Virus record (IMG/VR): IMGVR_UViG_3300043496_000104
Location: 1 to 38,216 of that record
Length of the DNA stretch: 38,216 bases
From: a virus
Direction: 5' to 3' (one strand)
The notes beneath the pieces are model-generated. The model did not search any database. It was not told the origin of the DNA and saw nothing but the letters and a program-made list of their open reading frames with translations. A program made the translations under genes and the position numbers. This document shows, piece by piece, positions 6,380 through 36,810 of the stretch. Each line of letters begins with the position of its first letter. Positions within the stretch are counted from its first letter, which is position 1.

Positions 6380-6667
6380 ATGGGGGAACGAGAACGGCCA
6401 GAGGAGCACACCGAGGATCGGTTCTTCGATGTCGAAGCGCTGTCGCGCTACTGCGGGATTTCGGTCAAGACGCTACGCCGCTACATGGAAGATCCGACGC
6501 ATCCGCTCCCGAATCACCATGTGCATGTGACGGGGCTCGAGCGCGGGCGCATCTTGATCGCGAAACGCGAGTTCGACGCGTGGGTGGCGAGCTTCCCGCC
6601 GCTGCGGCTACGGCCAGCGAAGGTGGAGCGCCTGGCGCCGGCGCCAGTGGCGCGGCGCGCGCGGTGA
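6380..6667 (+). CDS. Excisionase-like HTH protein (putative Xis)
   Basis: This 95-residue protein has FFDVEALSRYCGISVKTLRR, the MerR/AlpA-like HTH of small excisionases, followed by a wing ending GRILIAKREFDAWV. Such proteins bend DNA at attP and steer the integrase toward excision. It sits two genes upstream of the integrase in the same direction. An AAAGGGGGCAGGT ribosome site precedes the ATG at 6,380. Family is quite sure; the Xis role is inferred from position. Confidence 0.8.
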   Translation: MGERERPEEHTEDRFFDVEALSRYCGISVKTLRRYMEDPTHPLPNHHVHVTGLERGRILIAKREFDAWVASFPPLRLRPAKVERLAPAPVARRAR

Positions 6668-6699: not shown

Positions 6700-7020
6700 A
6701 TGACACAGAAACCTGCGCGGACTCGGAAGGATCCCGCCGCCGTCTCGCTTGGTCGGCGCGGTGGGAAAGTGAAATCAGACGCCAAGACGCGCGCGGCGCG
6801 CCGCAATGGCAAAAAGGGGGGCCGACCGCGCAAGCCGGTCGCGTCTCTCGTGCGCTACACCCCGACGGCGGCTGACCGCTGGGCGGCGCAGGCGCGGGCA
6901 CCGAAGCGGCCGCTGCCGGATTCAAAGATCGATTTTTCGGAGATCCCGGAGGCGAGCGACGAGTGGCTCGCGCAAGCGGTGCGGGACCGCGCCGCCCGTC
7001 TGCGGGGCGGTGGGCGATGA
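6700..7020 (+). CDS. Basic GRP-motif protein, putative antitoxin or DNA-binding factor
   Basis: This 106-residue protein has a strongly basic first half (SLGRRGGKVKSDAKTRAARR, then GKKGGRPRKPV, containing the GRP core of AT-hook-like motifs) and a tail KIDFSEIPEASDEWLAQAVR like the acidic start seen in BrnA/CopG-type antitoxins. No partner toxin is next to it; the integrase ATG overlaps its stop. It could be a DNA-bending accessory factor for attP, an orphan antitoxin or an int regulator. Its likely leaderless promoter would let it and int be expressed independently of the early operon. Confidence 0.65.
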   Translation: MTQKPARTRKDPAAVSLGRRGGKVKSDAKTRAARRNGKKGGRPRKPVASLVRYTPTAADRWAAQARAPKRPLPDSKIDFSEIPEASDEWLAQAVRDRAARLRGGGR

Positions 7021-8411
7021 AAACCACCCTTCGAGTCCGGCGCGAAGGCGGCCGCTGGATCTACGCGCCGATGATCCACGGCGCGCGCAAGCCGCGTGTC
7101 GATGTCACGGAGTACGCGCTCGCGCGGGGCGGGCCGCGCACGCTGCGGACGGAAGAGACGGCGGTGCAATGGGCCGCGAAAATTCAGGCCGACTGGCTGA
7201 ACGGCCGCGACCCCCGGAAGACGCCGACCGAACAAGCGACGACGACGCGCGCCCACACGGTCGCCGACCTGGTCGCCGCCTATCGCCGCGCGAACGCCGC
7301 GCACCCGGTGCTCGACGCCGATGACGACGGCAAGGCCCCGGCGCCGCGCCTGAAGCAGCCGGCCGTCGTCTGGAGCGAACTCCGGCACATCAGCGAGTAC
7401 TTCGGCGACGCGGCCGTGACCGACCTCGAGGACGAGACGACGGTCGGCAAGTTCGAGGACGAGCTCGCGGAGGGCTGGGCGCCGGGCGACAAGGTCGTGG
7501 AGCGCGGCGCGTCGGGCGTGCGGCACCTCCTGGTGCGGCTGCGCGCGGTCGTCCGGTGGGGGATGGGGCAGCGCACGCCGTGGCTGCGCCGCTCCCCGTT
7601 CCACCGGCACGGCGTCGCCATCACCGACCTGGACGACACCCGCAGCCGCCGGTTGAAGCCGCGCCTCTTCAGCGGGCTGAGTGAAGAGGCGGCGCTCCTG
7701 GTGGCGTGCCAGGTCATGAAGGGGGAGATCCACCAGGGCGCCGGGATCGCGCTCGAGCGGCGGATCCTCGGGGCGCTCGAATTGGCGGGCCGGGGCAGCG
7801 ACCTCAACCGGGTGCGCGTCGAGCATGTCGTGCTCAAACCTCTCAAGGGCCAGCCCTATGTCACGTTCCTCGGCCGGTCGCGCGGGGGCGGCAAGGCGAA
7901 GCAGGATCGCCGGGTGCCATTCGATCCGGCCGGGCCGCTCGCCCAGGTCCTGGCGGGGCAGCTGTGCGTCCTCGCGGCGGGCGACTACGTCTTCGGGGAC
8001 GACAACGGCCGGGTGGTGAGTCACTATCGGGCGTGGCGCACGGCGCGCCTGCTCGCCTACGGCATGATCACCGCCGACGGCCGGGGGCGCACCGCCGAGA
8101 GCGATCACAAGCTCCTGCAAGGGATCGATCTGCAGTTCCGGGATCTGCGGCGCGAGTGCGCGTCACGCTGGTGGCAGGCGGGCCTCGACCTCCGGCGGAT
8201 TCAGCTGCTGCTCGGGCATTCCACCCTGCTCATGACGCAGCGCTACCTGCAGCTGCCCGAGGGCGAGGATGACGGGGCCGCGGTCGCGGCGGCGATGGGT
8301 TGGGACGCTGACGCGGCGCCGGCAAGTACCCAGAAACCCGTACGAAGTACCCAGCAAGTACACAAAACGGCCAACCGAGGCAAAATGCTAAGCGGCGGAT
8401 CGAAGAGGTAA
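7017..8411 (+). CDS. int: Tyrosine integrase
   Basis: This 464-residue site-specific recombinase would insert and, with Xis, excise the prophage at a tRNA-Phe gene. The catalytic domain shows R259 (GRGSDLNRVRVEH), the strand region with GGGKAKQDRRVPF supplying the likely Lys, FRDLRRECAS (R375 to R379), LLLGHSTLLMTQRYLQL with H401 and nucleophile Y410. The box II histidine (usually HxLR) is R375 here. The start at 7,017 overlaps the previous stop (ATGA). The last codons overlap the left arm sites of attP. Tyrosine recombinase identity is secure. Confidence 0.95.
   Translation: MKTTLRVRREGGRWIYAPMIHGARKPRVDVTEYALARGGPRTLRTEETAVQWAAKIQADWLNGRDPRKTPTEQATTTRAHTVADLVAAYRRANAAHPVLDADDDGKAPAPRLKQPAVVWSELRHISEYFGDAAVTDLEDETTVGKFEDELAEGWAPGDKVVERGASGVRHLLVRLRAVVRWGMGQRTPWLRRSPFHRHGVAITDLDDTRSRRLKPRLFSGLSEEAALLVACQVMKGEIHQGAGIALERRILGALELAGRGSDLNRVRVEHVVLKPLKGQPYVTFLGRSRGGGKAKQDRRVPFDPAGPLAQVLAGQLCVLAAGDYVFGDDNGRVVSHYRAWRTARLLAYGMITADGRGRTAESDHKLLQGIDLQFRDLRRECASRWWQAGLDLRRIQLLLGHSTLLMTQRYLQLPEGEDDGAAVAAAMGWDADAAPASTQKPVRSTQQVHKTANRGKMLSGGSKR
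8324..8365 (+). repeat. Left attP arm-type repeats (3 copies)
   Basis: AAGTACCCAG at 8,324 and 8,345 and AAGTACACAA at 8,356 lie inside the 3' end of int. The spacings of 21 and 11 bp are two and one helical turns, and a degenerate slot sits between the first two. They match the right-hand set in sequence and orientation, as expected for integrase arm-binding sites. Confidence 0.75.
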
Positions 8412-8437
8412 GTGGTGGATTCTAGAGGGGTTGTCGG

Positions 8438-8485
8438 TGGTGGCGAGGGCCAGAATCGAACTGGCGACACTACGATTTTCAGTCG
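8438..8485 (-). other. attP: attP core: 3' end of a tRNA-Phe gene
   Basis: Read on the minus strand, 8,485-8,438 is the 3' part of a tRNA: last three bases of the 5' anticodon stem, loop CTGAAAA with anticodon GAA (Phe), 3' anticodon stem TCGTA, variable GTGTC, T-stem GCCAG/CTGGC around TTCGATT, acceptor strand CCTCGCC, A73 and encoded CCA. The 5' half is missing and the anticodon stem mismatches outside the core, so it is not a functional tRNA but phage DNA that restores the host gene after integration. It lies 26 bp after int between two arm-site clusters. Confidence 0.9.
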
Positions 8486-8597
8486 GGTAACTCCGGTAGT
8501 CATCTGTATCGATGACTATTCCTCTCCTGTTTTTCCTAACAAACTCACCCACTTACACCTTCTTATCGGGAGATGAATAGTGATGAGTTCCCGATCG

Positions 8598-8629
8598 AAG
8601 TACGCAGCAAGTACACAGGAAGTACACAG
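8598..8629 (+). repeat. Right attP arm-type repeats (3 copies)
   Basis: AAGTACGCAG (8,598), AAGTACACAG (8,609) and AAGTACACAG (8,620) are in direct orientation with exact 11-bp steps. Together with the left set they bracket the tRNA-derived core. An AT-rich stretch (about 8,510-8,590) lies between core and right arm and could hold accessory bending sites. Confidence 0.75.
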
Positions 8630-8654
8630 GGCCTGTGGTCCGAGGGGTGCGTCA

Positions 8655-14134: not shown

Positions 14135-15169
14135 TTACTTCGCCGCATCCAGCGCGTTCCCAGCGCCAATGTATGGAAGCTGCGGCTGTTTGCCAAACAG
14201 CGTCTTAAACTGCTGCTCAAAGACGGCCTTCGACGCCGAGAGTTGCATGATGGTCAGAACGGTGGTGATTTGGCGATCCAGGTGGGGGATGCCGGTACCA
14301 ATTGTCATCGTTTGCCACAACTTCGCGCGGCGATTGCCGTTCTCGTTCTTTGGCAGGAGGCGCTTCATTTCCGCGGGGACTCCAGGCGGCAGCGGGTCGT
14401 AGATGTACTTGTTAATAAATTTACCAAGATACTGCGGGTGCTTCACGGACCCCGACTTGTACTCCCATCCGTGCAGGCGGTACGTTTCTCGGAAAAACTC
14501 GTGCGGGAATCTGCGCGTCCATGGCATCAAGCTAGGAGCGATGTAGAGCGCGATGATCTTCAGCGCGTCCTCTCGCGCCTTATCGGCCTGATAGCCGGTC
14601 GCGAGATCTACCATCGCACGGATGCCGTCCTTGGCGAGTGCGCGGGTCAGGGTGTCGCAGGCCGTCACGATGTGCGCGTACTTCGTCGGGACGCGCTTGT
14701 TCTTCTCGTAGTACCAGTCGCGGAGTTTCAGGTAGACCTCTGCGACCATTGGCAGCAGGAGCGCGTCGTAGCCCACTGTGCGCTGCCCGTTCCGAAGCCT
14801 GAACAGGATCGGAGTCGTCGACAACACCAACTCCTCAGACACAAAGGGCTTAAGCTCCTCTGCCTGCAAGAAAAAGGGGAGATCGTCGACAGTCGAGAAG
14901 CCGCCTGTTCCGGCCTTCGGCGTGCGCGAGCGCCCGATAGCCTGAAGGAACGTGCCCTGACTCAGGAGTCGCTTACCGTTGCCAAGGACGGCTGCGATCA
15001 AGGTGCGATCCCCCAGCTGCATAGCGCCGTCGTGCGTGGCCTGTGGAAGATCGGCGTTCCAGCGAGCCAAGGCCGCCGTTCGCCCGGCCGCTGCGAGTTC
15101 CTCCTTGGTGAGCACCGTCGCGCGAGTCTTGCCGCCCTTCGACTGCCTGCTGATACTATTGTCGGACAT
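14135..15169 (-). CDS. P63C-domain protein, leftward moron
   Basis: This 344-residue protein matches the P63C domain (PF10546): RTLIAAVLGNGKRLLSQGTF, LPFFLQAEELKPFVSEEL, GYDALLLPMVAEVYLKLRDW, IRAMVDLATGYQ, RFPHEFFRETYRLHGW, IYDPLPPGVPAEMKRLLPKN. The family's biochemical role is unknown; it is widespread in phages and plasmids. It begins with a basic disordered stretch. It runs against the late genes between TerL/wHTH and portal, has visibly lower GC than them, its own ribosome site (AGGAGCAGGC) and its own TTGACA promoter: a textbook moron. Domain call is confident, role unknown. Confidence 0.88.
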   Translation of the reverse strand: MSDNSISRQSKGGKTRATVLTKEELAAAGRTAALARWNADLPQATHDGAMQLGDRTLIAAVLGNGKRLLSQGTFLQAIGRSRTPKAGTGGFSTVDDLPFFLQAEELKPFVSEELVLSTTPILFRLRNGQRTVGYDALLLPMVAEVYLKLRDWYYEKNKRVPTKYAHIVTACDTLTRALAKDGIRAMVDLATGYQADKAREDALKIIALYIAPSLMPWTRRFPHEFFRETYRLHGWEYKSGSVKHPQYLGKFINKYIYDPLPPGVPAEMKRLLPKNENGNRRAKLWQTMTIGTGIPHLDRQITTVLTIMQLSASKAVFEQQFKTLFGKQPQLPYIGAGNALDAAK

Positions 15170-32556: not shown

Positions 32557-32767
32557 TCGGCCAGGCGCGCCAGACGGCGTACAGAAACGGCGCGACGAAG
32601 AGCCAGATCGTGGTCGCCCAGCCCCACGTCATGACGTAGTGGCCGACGAAGAGATACGCGCCCAGCCCGGCGAGGGACCATTTCACGGTGCGCCAGAGCG
32701 GCTGGAAGCGGCGCGGCACGCGGGCGTCCCAGCGGGTACTCCACGGGGACGGCGTCGGGGCAGCCAT
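32522..32767 (-). CDS. Small two-TM membrane protein, third gene of the MazEF cassette
   Basis: This 81-residue protein has two predicted membrane helices (about residues 30-47, WSLAGLGAYLFVGHYV, and 48-68, TTIWLFVAPFLYAVW) and a basic amino end. CGGAGGTGTG gives a strong ribosome site, and its ATG overlaps the mazF stop (ATGA), so it is made with the toxin. It could be a holin-like, exclusion or TA-associated membrane protein; family not recognised. Confidence 0.7.
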   Translation of the reverse strand: MAAPTPSPWSTRWDARVPRRFQPLWRTVKWSLAGLGAYLFVGHYVMTWGWATTIWLFVAPFLYAVWRAWPTSAPPSPPSPR

Positions 32768-33111
32768 CACACCTCCGGCGCGACCGCGAAGAGGGTTTGG
32801 AGCGTTTCCAGGACCGCGGTGACCGTCTCCGCTGGGAGCCGGCCGAGGCGCTGGACGAGCCGGCGGCGATCGACGGTGCGGATCTGATCCAGCACGAGCA
32901 GACCCGCCCGCCGCTGAAAGCGACAGGGGACGCGCCACGGCGCGGGATGGCTCCCCGTCGTCAGCGGCACCACAATGACCGTCGCGAGATGCGCGTTCAG
33001 CGTATCGGGCGACACGAGGAGGCAGGGACGTGTCTTCTGGATCTCATGGCCTTCGGTCGGGTCGAGCCGGACGAGATGCACCTCGCCGCGCCGAACGGTT
33101 ACCACGTCCAC
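32767..33111 (-). CDS. mazF: MazF/PemK-type toxin (endoribonuclease)
   Basis: This 114-residue protein has RRGEVHLVRLDPTEGHEIQK, TRPCLLVSPDTLNAH, VIVVPLTTG and LLVLDQIRTVDRRRLVQRLG, the complete MazF/PemK order including the RGEV start and the basic end. Such toxins cut mRNA at short sequences when the antitoxin is degraded. It overlaps mazE by 13 bp. Full-length, apparently intact. Confidence 0.93.
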   Translation of the reverse strand: MDVVTVRRGEVHLVRLDPTEGHEIQKTRPCLLVSPDTLNAHLATVIVVPLTTGSHPAPWRVPCRFQRRAGLLVLDQIRTVDRRRLVQRLGRLPAETVTAVLETLQTLFAVAPEV

Positions 33112-33353
33112 TCGGTGTGATCGAAGGTGGTGGCGACGGCCGGATCGAGCAGCGTATCGCCGCCGGCCGCGTGCAGCGCTTTGGCGGCGTCTGCCCAGCC
33201 GCGCTGGGACTGGCGCACGGCGCGGATCGTCACCTGGCCGGGCACGGCCTCCAGTTCGAGCTCGTCGCCGAGGCCGGCCTGTTCGATCACGGCCCGCGGG
33301 AGGCGCACGCCGCGCGAATTGCCGATCGGGATGAGATGCGTACGGATCGCCAT
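33099..33353 (-). CDS. mazE: MazE-like antitoxin (AbrB fold)
   Basis: This 84-residue protein begins MAIRTHLIPIGNSRGVRLPR, AVIEQAGLGDELELE, the swapped-hairpin AbrB domain of MazE, and ends with an acidic tail (LDPAVATTFDHTEWTW) for toxin binding. ATG 33,353 was chosen at the domain start. No Shine-Dalgarno is visible; the promoter -10 is nine bases before the ATG, suggesting a near-leaderless mRNA. Confidence 0.92.
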   Translation of the reverse strand: MAIRTHLIPIGNSRGVRLPRAVIEQAGLGDELELEAVPGQVTIRAVRQSQRGWADAAKALHAAGGDTLLDPAVATTFDHTEWTW

Positions 33354-33362
33354 CGTGGGTCT

Positions 33363-33392
33363 ATTGTAATTACATAGGGTCGGGGGAGTCAA
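33363..33392 (-). promoter_or_regulatory. mazE promoter with TGTAATTACA operator
   Basis: On the minus strand TTGACT (33,392-33,387) and TACAAT (33,368-33,363) are 18 bp apart. TGTAATTACA (33,365-33,374), a perfect palindrome typical of AbrB-fold sites, overlaps the -10, fitting MazE autorepression. The -35 overlaps the region just before the rightward gene at 33,397. Confidence 0.75.
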
Positions 33393-33396
33393 CGCG

Positions 33397-34158
33397 ATGC
33401 CTGAGTACACCGAAACCGACCCGCGCACGGGGCGTACGCTCATCTTCCGCGGGCCGACGAAGCCGTCGCCCGCGGTGGTCGCGGCCGCGTTCGCGAAACT
33501 GGAGAAGGCCGCGCGCGGCGACCCGCGGGCCGATGTGCCGGGGCATCCCGGCTACTCCGATCTGTTGAACCGCGACGTGGGGCCGCTGACGATCACGCCG
33601 ATGGAGCCACACAACCTGGCCGACCCGATGGTGTATCAGCCGCTCGAGGCGCCGTCGCGCGCCCGTGCGGCGGCTCCGGTCGTGAGTGCCCGTGAGGCCG
33701 CGAACGCGCGCCGGGCGCCGGCCGCCGGTCGGGGCGCCCCGCCGCTCGGCGCGGACGAGGCGGCCTTTCAGCGGTACTACGCGAACTGGGCGGGACCGAA
33801 CCAGATGAACCCCAACCCAGACGACCCCCTGCAGCAGTACGACTACCGCGCTGCGTTCCGCCAGGGCATCAGGCCCCCGCCGCCGGGCGGGCATTGGCCG
33901 TCGCCGAATAAAGCCGCCGGCCATCCCAACCTGATCGTCGGCGGGTTCCACACGCAGACGGGCGAGCGAGTACCGGGGACGCCCCGCGCCGATGAGGCCG
34001 AACTTGTCCGGCTCGGGTGGGCGCCCGAGGACGCGGCGCGCCTCGCGCAGACGCCGGAGCCGGAGGACAGCGTGTTGCCGGTGATGCGTCCGCTCGCAGC
34101 GGTCGCCGCCGCGGGCGCTCGACGCGGCGGCCCCGATCGATCCCCGCGGCGACAGTAG
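33397..34158 (+). CDS. Conserved phage protein with DYRAAFRQG-HWPS motif
   Basis: In this 253-residue protein, LQQYDYRAAFRQG, GGHWPSPNKAAGHPN is a motif I know from podophage structural-region proteins. The amino end (MPEYTETDPRTGRTLIF) and Pro/Ala linkers are likely extended. GGGGGAG precedes the ATG. It resumes the late rightward genes after the MazEF insertion, and is probably an internal or minor structural protein. Confidence 0.72.
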   Translation: MPEYTETDPRTGRTLIFRGPTKPSPAVVAAAFAKLEKAARGDPRADVPGHPGYSDLLNRDVGPLTITPMEPHNLADPMVYQPLEAPSRARAAAPVVSAREAANARRAPAAGRGAPPLGADEAAFQRYYANWAGPNQMNPNPDDPLQQYDYRAAFRQGIRPPPPGGHWPSPNKAAGHPNLIVGGFHTQTGERVPGTPRADEAELVRLGWAPEDAARLAQTPEPEDSVLPVMRPLAAVAAAGARRGGPDRSPRRQ

Positions 34159-34209: not shown

Positions 34210-35943
34210 ATGGGAAAGGTCGTTACCTTCATCGCGCCGCCCTGGTGGGACGAGGCGCTCGCGTTTTTCTGCCGCCTCCAGGACCGGCCGCAGCCTCCGG
34301 ATCCAAATCCCTCGCCTCCGGATCAGGAGTGGCAACTCGGCATCACCGTGACGCCGGCCGACGCGACCGTGACGGTGCGCCAGCAGCGCGCGCGCGTGAC
34401 CGGCGTGCGCGAGGGTGACAGCGCGCACTACCTGATCGCGATGCACGCGCCGCCGTTCGAGATCGGCGCGTTTGGCCGCTTGGTGGTCGAGGCGCCCGGC
34501 TATGTCACCTACGACGAGCCGTTGCCGGTCACCGGCCGCCCTGACGAACTGCCGGCGGTGACGCTCGAGGTGACGGAGCAGTCCTGGGCGCTCGGCCTCT
34601 CGGTCAGCCCCGAGGACGCACATGCGTTCATGGACACCGGTGGCCAGCGCGTCGAGGGCGTCGTGGATGCCGGCGGCGGCGCGCATCGCCTGCTGCACTT
34701 CGAGGCCCCGCCGTGCGCGCCGAATGCGCCCGGTCAGCTGACGGTCGAAGCGCCTGGCCATGCCACGTCGATCACGTCGATGGCGATTGGTCCCGACCAG
34801 CCGGCCGGCTTTCCGCACTGGCCCGAACTCCCGATGGTGACGCTCGAGCGGGTCGCGCCGGTCCTCACGCCGCTCCGCATCAACGGCAAGTTTTTCGAGC
34901 AGCAGGACGGCACGCCGCACGCGCGGATCGCCTGTTCCGACTTCGGGCTGATCCGGCTCATGGCCGCGGGCCAGGACATCGTGCCGATCCTGCGCGAGCG
35001 GGTGCAGCTCGGGTTCAACGAGGTGCGCGTGTTCTCGATGATGTGCGGCACGCTCGGCCGGCTCCTCCCGACGGAGATCCCCGACTACTACACGAAACTG
35101 CTGCCGACGTTCCTCGCGCTCGCGGAGGCGGAAGGCCTGCGCGTTGAGCTTACCGCGCTGGTCGATGCGAACGGCGACAGCAGCAACGGGGCGCACTGGT
35201 CGCAGCAGCAGCGCATCGAACACTTTGAGCAGTGCGCGGCGATCCTCCGCGCGCGCGCCGGCGTGCCGCACTTTCTCGAGCGCGTGAATGAAAACGATCA
35301 ACTGATGAACGCGACGCCGATGGACGGCTTCCTGCGCCCGGTGGGGATCTGGGCCTGCAGCGGTAGTTACGGCGCCGACGTGATCCCGCCGGTCTACGCC
35401 CCGCAGTGGGACTACGGCACGATTCATCCGGCGCGGCCGCCGGACTGGCCGCGCAAGGCGGTCCACAACCCGATGGAGGACATCGCCGACCGCTGCGGCA
35501 TCCCGGCGACGGCGAACGAGCTCTGCCGGCCCGACCAGGGCCGCGGCCCGGTGCCGGGCGACCACTTCGACTGCGGCGCCGGCATGCTGCTGCTCCACAA
35601 CGGCGGCTGCTTCCATAGCGAGGCGGGGAAGTACTCGACGCTGCTCGCGCACAACGGCACCGAACTCAGTTGCGCGCAGGCGTTCATCGCGGGCGTGCGC
35701 GCGGTGCCGCTCGACTATCGCTACGGCCAGTACACGGCGGGCCATCTCTCGGAGATGCCGATCGAGACGCACCCGGCCGGCGGCGAGGACCCGCTCGTCT
35801 GGAACAGCCGCGCGTATGCGCGGATCGTGGGCGGCCAGGCGTGCGCGGTGGTGATTCAGCGGACCGAGGCGTTCGAGGTCAAGCCGCTCAACGGCTGGAC
35901 GATTGTCGAGCAAATCGAGTCGGTGTTCTACTGCACGCGCTAG
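34210..35943 (+). CDS. Large protein: two PEGA-like repeats and glycosidase-like barrel
   Basis: This 577-residue protein has two similar beta modules at roughly 43-120 and 128-220 (TVTPADATVTV..., LVVEAPGYVTYDEPLPVTG; SVSPEDAHAFM..., LTVEAPGHATSITSMAIG), like PEGA/carboxypeptidase-regulatory folds. From about 225 a TIM-barrel-like part begins INGKFFEQQDG, with VRVFSMMCGTLGRL, VELTALVDANGDSSNG, FLERVNENDQ (E361 in the N-E pair of clan A glycosidases) and IPATANELCRP (E437, a candidate nucleophile). It could degrade host polysaccharide as a virion depolymerase. Family inferred from pattern; not certain. Confidence 0.68.
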   Translation: MGKVVTFIAPPWWDEALAFFCRLQDRPQPPDPNPSPPDQEWQLGITVTPADATVTVRQQRARVTGVREGDSAHYLIAMHAPPFEIGAFGRLVVEAPGYVTYDEPLPVTGRPDELPAVTLEVTEQSWALGLSVSPEDAHAFMDTGGQRVEGVVDAGGGAHRLLHFEAPPCAPNAPGQLTVEAPGHATSITSMAIGPDQPAGFPHWPELPMVTLERVAPVLTPLRINGKFFEQQDGTPHARIACSDFGLIRLMAAGQDIVPILRERVQLGFNEVRVFSMMCGTLGRLLPTEIPDYYTKLLPTFLALAEAEGLRVELTALVDANGDSSNGAHWSQQQRIEHFEQCAAILRARAGVPHFLERVNENDQLMNATPMDGFLRPVGIWACSGSYGADVIPPVYAPQWDYGTIHPARPPDWPRKAVHNPMEDIADRCGIPATANELCRPDQGRGPVPGDHFDCGAGMLLLHNGGCFHSEAGKYSTLLAHNGTELSCAQAFIAGVRAVPLDYRYGQYTAGHLSEMPIETHPAGGEDPLVWNSRAYARIVGGQACAVVIQRTEAFEVKPLNGWTIVEQIESVFYCTR

Positions 35944-36284
35944 CGCGCCGCTTTGGGGCGGCCGCCGAGCCGCCCATTCGCGCGCGAGCTGGCCGCTTTC
36001 CGCCGGCTGGTCCGCTGGCCCAGTAGGGCGGCGGCGCTCATGAGGGCCACGCGCGCCCGGCGTGGACGCGCGCCGTCCTGCACGGTCGCGACCTGAATCT
36101 GCGTGCGCGCCGCCGGGAGCGGCGCCCCGTCCTCGCGCAACCCGTCCACATGCGCGGCAATCGCGGCCCGGATCAGCCGCTGCGCCTCCTGTAGGGTGCG
36201 GCCCACGGCGACACAGCCGGGGAGATCGGGCACACTCGCCCCGTAACTCGTCGGTCCCTGTTCGATGACGACGGCGTAGGTCAT
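35940..36284 (-). CDS. hicB: HicB-type antitoxin
   Basis: This 114-residue protein begins MTYAVVIEQGPTSYGASVPD, LPGCVAVGRTLQEAQRLIRA, the partial RNase H fold of HicB. The carboxy part is not a clear HTH but a basic stretch (SRRKAASSRANGRLGGRPKA) that may bind DNA. Its ATG overlaps the hicA stop. The stop codon shares a CTAG with the convergent 34,210 gene. Confidence 0.9.
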   Translation of the reverse strand: MTYAVVIEQGPTSYGASVPDLPGCVAVGRTLQEAQRLIRAAIAAHVDGLREDGAPLPAARTQIQVATVQDGARPRRARVALMSAAALLGQRTSRRKAASSRANGRLGGRPKAAR

Positions 36285-36475
36285 AACTCCTCCCAGCCTG
36301 CTTGTTTAGCGATGCTCTTCAGCGTCCCGATGGGGAGATCCTGATTGGCCCCGTGAAACGCGATCGTGACGCGGCCCGGTTTCCTCGGGTGCTTCAACTG
36401 CCGGTGACTCCCGGAACTCTTCACGGTGACCCAGCCCTCGGCGGCTAAGCGCGTCAACACCTCGCGCACTTTCAT
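36281..36475 (-). CDS. hicA: HicA-type mRNA interferase toxin
   Basis: This 64-residue protein has KVREVLTRLAAEGWVTVKSS, GSHRQLKHPRKPGRVTIAFH and DLPIGTLKSIAKQAGW, the double-stranded-RNA-binding-like HicA fold with catalytic His in GSH. ATG 36,475 begins at the domain and follows a TATACT box by eight bases with no Shine-Dalgarno. Toxin precedes antitoxin, as usual for hicAB. Confidence 0.93.
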   Translation of the reverse strand: MKVREVLTRLAAEGWVTVKSSGSHRQLKHPRKPGRVTIAFHGANQDLPIGTLKSIAKQAGWEEL

Positions 36476-36483
36476 ACCCAGAG

Positions 36484-36512
36484 AGTATAACCTATCGCTA
36501 GGTTTTATGCAA
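36484..36512 (-). promoter_or_regulatory. hicAB promoter with AACCTA-TAGGTT operator
   Basis: On the minus strand TTGCAT (36,512-36,507) and TATACT (36,489-36,484) are 17 bp apart. AACCTA GCGA TAGGTT (36,489-36,504), a perfect 6+4+6 inverted repeat, fills most of the spacer and touches the -10: a clear autoregulatory operator. Confidence 0.75.
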
Positions 36513-36531
36513 GTCGTGCGGCGCGCGGCCG

Positions 36532-36810
36532 CTAATCGGGGAAGGGCAGCGGCTGGATCCCGGCGCACTGCAGGCAGATGCGCGGCACGTCGGGAAACGG
36601 GCCGCGCGTGTCATAGACGATCAAGGCGCTGCAGCGGTGGCAGGTGTCCAGGTCGGCGCCCGGCGGGAGCGGTTGGCCGAAGGGATAGTCCACAACGCGC
36701 CGGCAGATCACCACGTCCGGCGTCCGGCCGCCGGCGGGCACCTCGGTGAGCTCGTCGGGCTGGCGCTCGTAGAAACGGCCGCCGCTCGTCTCGCGCGTCT
36801 TCTTGGTCAT
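36532..36810 (-). CDS. Small putative zinc-binding protein, 92 aa
   Basis: DTCHRCSALIVYD and RICLQCAG provide two CxxC pairs about 20 residues apart, a zinc-ribbon spacing. The amino part is basic and polar (MTKKTRETSGGRFYERQPDE). It is coupled to the upstream gene by an ATGA overlap. Function unknown; part of a leftward operon that may be expressed in the lysogen. Confidence 0.65.
   Translation of the reverse strand: MTKKTRETSGGRFYERQPDELTEVPAGGRTPDVVICRRVVDYPFGQPLPPGADLDTCHRCSALIVYDTRGPFPDVPRICLQCAGIQPLPFPD

What the first reader, a model, noticed from the sequence alone, without database searches (positions are those of the whole stretch)
8324..8629. Complete attP: tRNA-Phe 3' end between two sets of helically phased arm sites
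The core restores bases from position 29 through CCA of a tRNA-Phe. Three copies of AAGTAC-CAG lie on each side, spaced 21/11 and 11/11 bp, in the same orientation. The left set is inside the int coding sequence, so the integrase carboxy terminus is constrained by DNA function. The core gives a 48-nt probe for the host: the host tRNA-Phe acceptor strand should begin GGCGAGG.
Basis: partly seen in the sequence, partly recalled or inferred. Interest (0 to 1): 0.7.

Follow-up and report, generated by a model that had tools for sequence, protein, structure and literature searches.

The report
Phage attP in tRNA-Phe gene
This is the docking site a phage uses to insert itself into a bacterial tRNA-Phe gene without breaking it: a complete but ordinary lambda-style attachment site, whose one uncommon trait, shared by its relatives, is that half of the integrase's own binding sites lie inside the end of the integrase gene.

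Summary
All six exact copies of AAGTACNCAR in the 38-kb window lie between 8324 and 8629, three on each side of a 48-nt sequence that is the reverse complement of tRNA-Phe positions 29 to CCA. The left copies are in the 3' coding end of a tyrosine integrase gene (7017-8411). Best reading: a lambda-type attP that crosses over in the anticodon loop and restores the host tRNA-Phe. Related phages (same terminase family) support it: most carry int, a tRNA fragment (Glu, fMet, Thr, Arg and others) and their own, different direct repeats. In six of these the left repeats also lie in the int tail after the catalytic tyrosine; in one they straddle the int stop.

The host prediction is only partly supported. 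The 48-mer matches none of 84,980 reference genomes. A relaxed probe found 34 loci, nearly all Thermoleophilia, whose intact tRNA-Phe genes begin GGCGAGG as predicted (best: 1 mismatch in 44). But these lack the encoded CCA that the attP carries, and the phage family's terminase is almost absent from that class, so the host is unidentified. Closest published systems: attP of cluster J mycobacteriophages and of Pixie. New member of a known kind.

The parts
7017..8411 (+). int, tyrosine recombinase, 464 aa; N-terminal beta-hairpin plus helix domain (about residues 1-66), catalytic domain ending near residue 413, Tyr410, 54-residue tail
   Evidence: PF00589 E 8.4e-8, above cut-off; N-terminal domain predicted with pLDDT about 90; catalytic Tyr by motif
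8324..8333 (+). left arm-type site 1, AAGTACCCAG, inside int
   Evidence: -155 to -147 from the centre of the anticodon loop (first 9 bases)
8345..8354 (+). left arm-type site 2, AAGTACCCAG, inside int
8356..8365 (+). left arm-type site 3, AAGTACACAA, inside int, other reading frame than sites 1 and 2
   Evidence: frame from coordinates
8438..8485 (-). attP common core: tRNA-Phe positions 29-76 (CCA included)
   Evidence: sequence; matches bacterial tRNA-Phe at 43 of 44 body positions
8473..8485 (-). inferred crossover site: 7-bp anticodon loop (8476-8482) between 3-bp inverted stem arms
   Evidence: sequence; analogy to tRNA-directed tyrosine integrases (PMC8371274); crossover not measured
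8598..8607 (+). right arm-type site 1, AAGTACGCAG
   Evidence: +119
8609..8618 (+). right arm-type site 2, AAGTACACAG
8620..8629 (+). right arm-type site 3, AAGTACACAG
8390..8420 (+). weak candidate accessory (excisionase or bending protein) sites: AAGCGGCGGAT 8390-8400 and AAGTGGTGGAT 8410-8420, with an inverted relative at 8549-8562
   Evidence: not above chance in the window as a whole (5 matches, 2.58 expected)
6380..6667 (+). candidate recombination directionality factor (small helix-turn-helix protein, 95 aa) upstream of int
   Evidence: HTH_17 E 1.9e-5 but 25.3 bits, below the 27-bit cut-off

Best explanation
The region is the attP of a temperate phage that integrates like lambda. The integrase is thought to bind the AAGTACNCAR arm sites with its N-terminal domain and the anticodon-stem half-sites with its core-binding and catalytic domains, and to recombine the 7-bp anticodon-loop sequence with the same sequence in a host tRNA-Phe gene. 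The phage supplies positions 29 to CCA, so an intact tRNA-Phe is rebuilt at the int-side junction and the host's own 3' half is displaced to the other end. int is read towards the rebuilt tRNA. The left arm occupies the last 29 codons of int, which extend beyond the catalytic domain. Shown: sequence anatomy, non-chance repeats, int family, the same layout in relatives. Inferred: binding, crossover point, host, tRNA restoration in vivo.
For: Six repeats only here. Both flanks of the core carry phage genes and repeats and there is no whole tRNA, so it is attP rather than attL/attR. int is a PF00589 member. Among 11 integrase-bearing records with related terminases nine have a tRNA fragment just after int and several have their own tandem repeats on both sides: L129, L132, L133 0 of 300 random sequences as good, L134 4, L135 5. 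In L130-L135 the left repeats are inside int, 145-186 or 54-73 bp from the anticodon loop. Unrelated bacteria of class Thermoleophilia have truncated tRNA-Phe copies that start at the same place, position 28-32 (L014, L029, L006), so tRNA-Phe is used as an attachment site at this point by other elements.
Against: No integrated copy and no bacterial genome with the exact core. The integrase itself has no detectable relatives in viral contigs or phages at tblastn level. Arm binding is inferred from repeats alone; the N-terminal domain gave no significant structural match. The window geometry (114-155 and 119-150 bp) differs from the 145-186/50-88 bp of most relatives.
Confidence: 0.93

Rival explanations
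1. A degenerate or relic attP: the integrase or the arms are no longer functional.
For: No prophage found; first His of the HxxR motif reads Arg (RDLR) in this integrase (sequence).
Against: int is intact over 464 codons with R, K, R, H and Tyr motifs in order; six arm sites nearly identical; 48-nt core without a break. Substitution of that His is known among tyrosine recombinases (own knowledge).
Confidence: 0.04
2. The AAGTAC repeats are operators of a repressor or other regulator, and only the core belongs to recombination.
For: Direct repeats near gene ends can be operators; two HTH repressor-like genes are in the window.
Against: Repeats flank the core on both sides at arm-like distances, none elsewhere in the genome, and relatives with other cores have the same layout with other repeat sequences, as expected if repeats track each integrase.
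Confidence: 0.04
3. The repeats are protein-level repeats of the integrase tail (STQ motifs) and have no DNA role.
For: Left sites 1 and 2 are 21 bp (7 codons) apart and encode the same STQ.
Against: Site 3 is 11 bp on and in another frame (QVH), and the three right copies lie outside int.
Confidence: 0.01
4. The host is a member of Thermoleophilia (Actinomycetota).
For: A probe with five free positions found 34 loci, titled almost all Thermoleophilia/Solirubrobacterales; best two differ from the core body at one position, 43.
Against: These tRNA genes do not encode CCA, the attP does; the terminase family has only one remote match in 399 genomes of the class; a virus record (L140) holds a CCA-encoding tRNA-Phe with the same last 33 nt; cores of most relatives also include CCA. 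The probe could only find tRNAs that differ at the freed positions.
Confidence: 0.3

Closest known systems
attP of cluster J mycobacteriophages (Omega, BAKA; PMC3706429)
   Same: Tyrosine integrase gene followed by a tRNA-derived core (44 bp, tRNA-Leu) about 100 bp from the end of int, flanked by pairs of 10-bp direct arm-type repeats on both sides; tRNA rebuilt
   Different: Different tRNA, repeat sequence (TGCATAC...) and host; two copies each side instead of three; core 26 bp from int here, left arm inside int
attP of mycobacteriophage Pixie (PMC3203893)
   Same: 47-bp tRNA-Lys core with direct arm-type sites, a pair left and three right
   Different: A sixth site is inverted in Pixie; here 3+3 all direct; integrase not detectably related
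Bacteriophage lambda attP/Int (PMC4880445)
   Same: Heterobivalent integrase, arm sites on both sides of a core, 7-bp overlap; left set at -155 to -114 is at a lambda-like distance
   Different: Lambda core is not a tRNA gene; lambda's right arm is nearer the core; IHF/Xis sites are known in lambda and not identified here
Suicide integrases of archaeal fuselloviruses (PMC8371274)
   Same: Attachment-site DNA overlaps int coding sequence, anticodon-loop crossover
   Different: There the core is inside int and integration splits the gene; here only the arm sites are inside and int stays whole

Membership tests
lambda-type tyrosine integrase attP | tyrosine recombinase gene adjacent | tested here: met
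   PF00589 8.4e-8, Tyr410
lambda-type tyrosine integrase attP | repeated arm-type sites on both sides of the core | tested here: met
   3+3 direct repeats, 0 of 300 random
lambda-type tyrosine integrase attP | N-terminal arm-binding domain in the integrase | tested here: inconclusive
   separate strand-helix domain predicted with confidence, no significant structural match
lambda-type tyrosine integrase attP | integrase binds the arm sites | not testable with these tools
   needs footprinting
lambda-type tyrosine integrase attP | directionality factor and bending-protein sites | tested here: inconclusive
   HTH_17 protein below cut-off; no IHF-consensus excess
tRNA-restoring attachment site (anticodon-loop type) | core equals the 3' part of a tRNA gene through the acceptor end | tested here: met
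   positions 29-CCA of tRNA-Phe; 43 of 44 body positions equal to bacterial tRNA-Phe
tRNA-restoring attachment site (anticodon-loop type) | identical sequence in a host chromosome | tested here: not met
   48-mer absent from 84,980 species genomes; the host may simply not be sequenced
tRNA-dependent lysogeny (short core plus phage tRNA gene) | short core that does not rebuild the tRNA, cognate tRNA gene in the phage | tested here: not met
   48-nt core rebuilds the tRNA; no tRNA gene in the window

The most novel reading that the evidence does not exclude
In this phage lineage the 3' tail of int is a standing home for the left arm of attP, so that integrase, its arm sites and the tRNA core form one compact cassette that is exchanged as a unit between tRNA targets, with the protein tail a by-product of DNA function.
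Probability: 0.4. Interest if true: 0.4.

Novelty: new member of a known kind. Interest (0 to 1): 0.3.

Why it matters
It marks the phage as temperate, gives its integration target and a probe for its unknown host, and places int plus attP (about 7017-8640) as a candidate integration cassette for bacteria that have no genetic tools. The comparison with relatives shows a phage lineage that has changed tRNA target repeatedly (Phe, Glu, fMet, Thr, Arg and others), each time with a different arm-site sequence.

Tried and rejected
Exact 48-mer and 45-mer in genome and viral contigs: nothing. A degenerate core in viral contigs: nothing. The doubled arm repeat in viral contigs: two chance matches in a structural gene and a non-integrase region. 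Integrase relatives in viral contigs, phages, or six Thermoleophilia genomes: none or only weak partial hits. Phage DNA similarity: none. Full-length integrase model without an alignment: too poor outside the N-terminal domain. Foldseek on that domain: no significant match. IHF-like sites: no excess. My first repeat scan on single 8-mers was not discriminating for several relatives; the paired-site test replaced it and is negative for L126, L128, L130 and L131, so the left repeats of L130 and L131 rest on visible tandem copies only (8-mers GGGTCATC and GGGGGTAC). Identifying L140's bacterial host was not possible.

Full report
The window is a 38,216-base virus record with terminase, portal-like and capsid genes and two repressor-like HTH genes. 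No end repeat of 12 bases or more at the lengths tried was found, so it may be linear, permuted or incomplete.

Observation. AAGTACNCAR occurs exactly six times, all at 8324-8629 on the + strand, three on each side of 8438-8485. The 48 bases 8438-8485 are the reverse complement of tRNA-Phe(GAA) from position 29 to the CCA end: 3 bases of the anticodon stem, the CTGAAAA loop, TCGTA, GTGTC, GCCAG-TTCGATT-CTGGC, CCTCGCC, A, CCA. The window holds no whole tRNA, and both flanks are phage DNA, so this is attP and not a prophage junction. int runs from ATG 7017 to TAA 8409-8411 and is a phage integrase. The three left repeats fall in its last 29 codons, after the catalytic Tyr410. G+C drops from about 70% in int to 42-60% in attP.

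DNA rather than protein. Left sites 1 and 2 share a frame, site 3 (11 bp on) is in another, and three further copies lie beyond the gene. One repeat read in two frames plus noncoding copies means the DNA is what is kept. The tail begins where the catalytic domain ends, so it is best seen as a frame that runs on into the phage arm.

Relatives. The terminase led to 74 related loci in viral contigs and the capsid protein to 10. Of 43 of these records searched, 11 carry a phage integrase. Nine have a tRNA fragment right after int: Thr (L128), Glu (L129, L134, L135), fMet (L130, L132), a long-arm tRNA (L131), a Ser-like end (L126) and the 5' half of tRNA-Arg (L133); L136 has an fMet fragment upstream of int and L127 none that I found (tRNA names are my reading). 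Requiring two tandem copies (10-14 bp apart) on each side, random sequence matched the observed identity in 0 of 300 trials for the window, L129, L132 and L133, 4 for L134 and 5 for L135; it was negative for L126, L128, L130 and L131. L130 (GGGTCATCC) and L131 (GGGGTAC) nevertheless have visible copies on both sides. In L130 to L135 the left copies are inside int, and in L129 they straddle the stop. The repeat sequences are all different, as are the integrases (mostly 22-40% identical, L134/L135 59%). In L130-L133 and L135 the arms sit 134-186 bp from the anticodon loop on one side and 50-88 bp on the other; L134, whose tRNA points the other way, mirrors this. The window differs: 114-155 and about 119-150 bp, with three sites a side.

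Mechanism. tRNA-directed tyrosine integrases use the 7-bp anticodon loop and its palindromic stem as overlap region and half-sites (PMC8371274). In lambda the N-terminal domain holds arm sites and the other domains the core (PMC4880445). By analogy the phage recombines at 8476-8482 and supplies the tRNA 3' half, giving tRNA-Phe followed after 26 bp by int in the opposite direction. Binding and crossover are inferred, not shown. A small HTH protein upstream of int (6380-6667) could be the excisionase but is below Pfam's cut-off.

Host. The exact core is in no reference genome. The best (L015, L037) differ at position 43 only. In 399 genomes of that class only those two are within one mismatch. 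Against this class as host: no encoded CCA in its tRNA-Phe, whereas the attP has it, and the terminase family gives just one remote match. L140, a virus record, has a whole tRNA-Phe with CCA and the same last 33 nt. The host is therefore open.

Known systems. Cluster J mycobacteriophages have int, a 44-bp tRNA-Leu core downstream and paired 10-bp direct arm repeats on each side (PMC3706429); Pixie has a tRNA-Lys core with two plus three direct sites (PMC3203893). The present case is one more of that kind. I found no paper in the library stating that arm sites lie inside the int coding tail, but the searches were limited and much of the older literature is not held.

Noticed in passing
L133 (record G429), oriented 2085-2124: A related phage carries the 5' half of a tRNA-Arg(TCT) in its attP instead of a 3' half, and the int stop codon TAG is the TAG of the tRNA's own GTAGCTC; its arm repeats TGGGACGAC are 2+2.
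   Followed up: partly
L140:1639-1714: A 59-kb virus record has a complete CCA-encoding tRNA-Phe whose last base abuts the stop codon of a convergent integrase, with TTTTGATCCACTT repeats on the other side; single copy in the record.
   Followed up: partly
L014:7378 and L017:2066 (same contig JAUJNT010000002.1); also L029 and L006: Thermoleophilia genomes with truncated tRNA-Phe copies starting at position 28-32, in L014/L017 about 10.7 kb from the whole gene in the same orientation: remnants of other elements integrated at tRNA-Phe.
   Followed up: partly
L136 (record G400): The relative with the closest terminase has its fMet fragment upstream, not downstream, of int, so the cassette has been rearranged within the group.
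   Followed up: no
window 8497-8518: Perfect 8-bp inverted repeat TAGTCATC/GATGACTA beside the core; could be a terminator for int or a protein site.
   Followed up: no
window 35940-36568, - strand: HicA toxin gene (Pfam E 1.3e-19) with a HicB-like reading frame next to it.
   Followed up: partly
window 32767-33443, - strand: A MazF-like reading frame preceded by a MazE-like one, judged by eye only.
   Followed up: no
window 14135-15169, - strand: P63C-domain protein (Pfam E 3.3e-29) of unknown role on the strand opposite to the structural genes.
   Followed up: no
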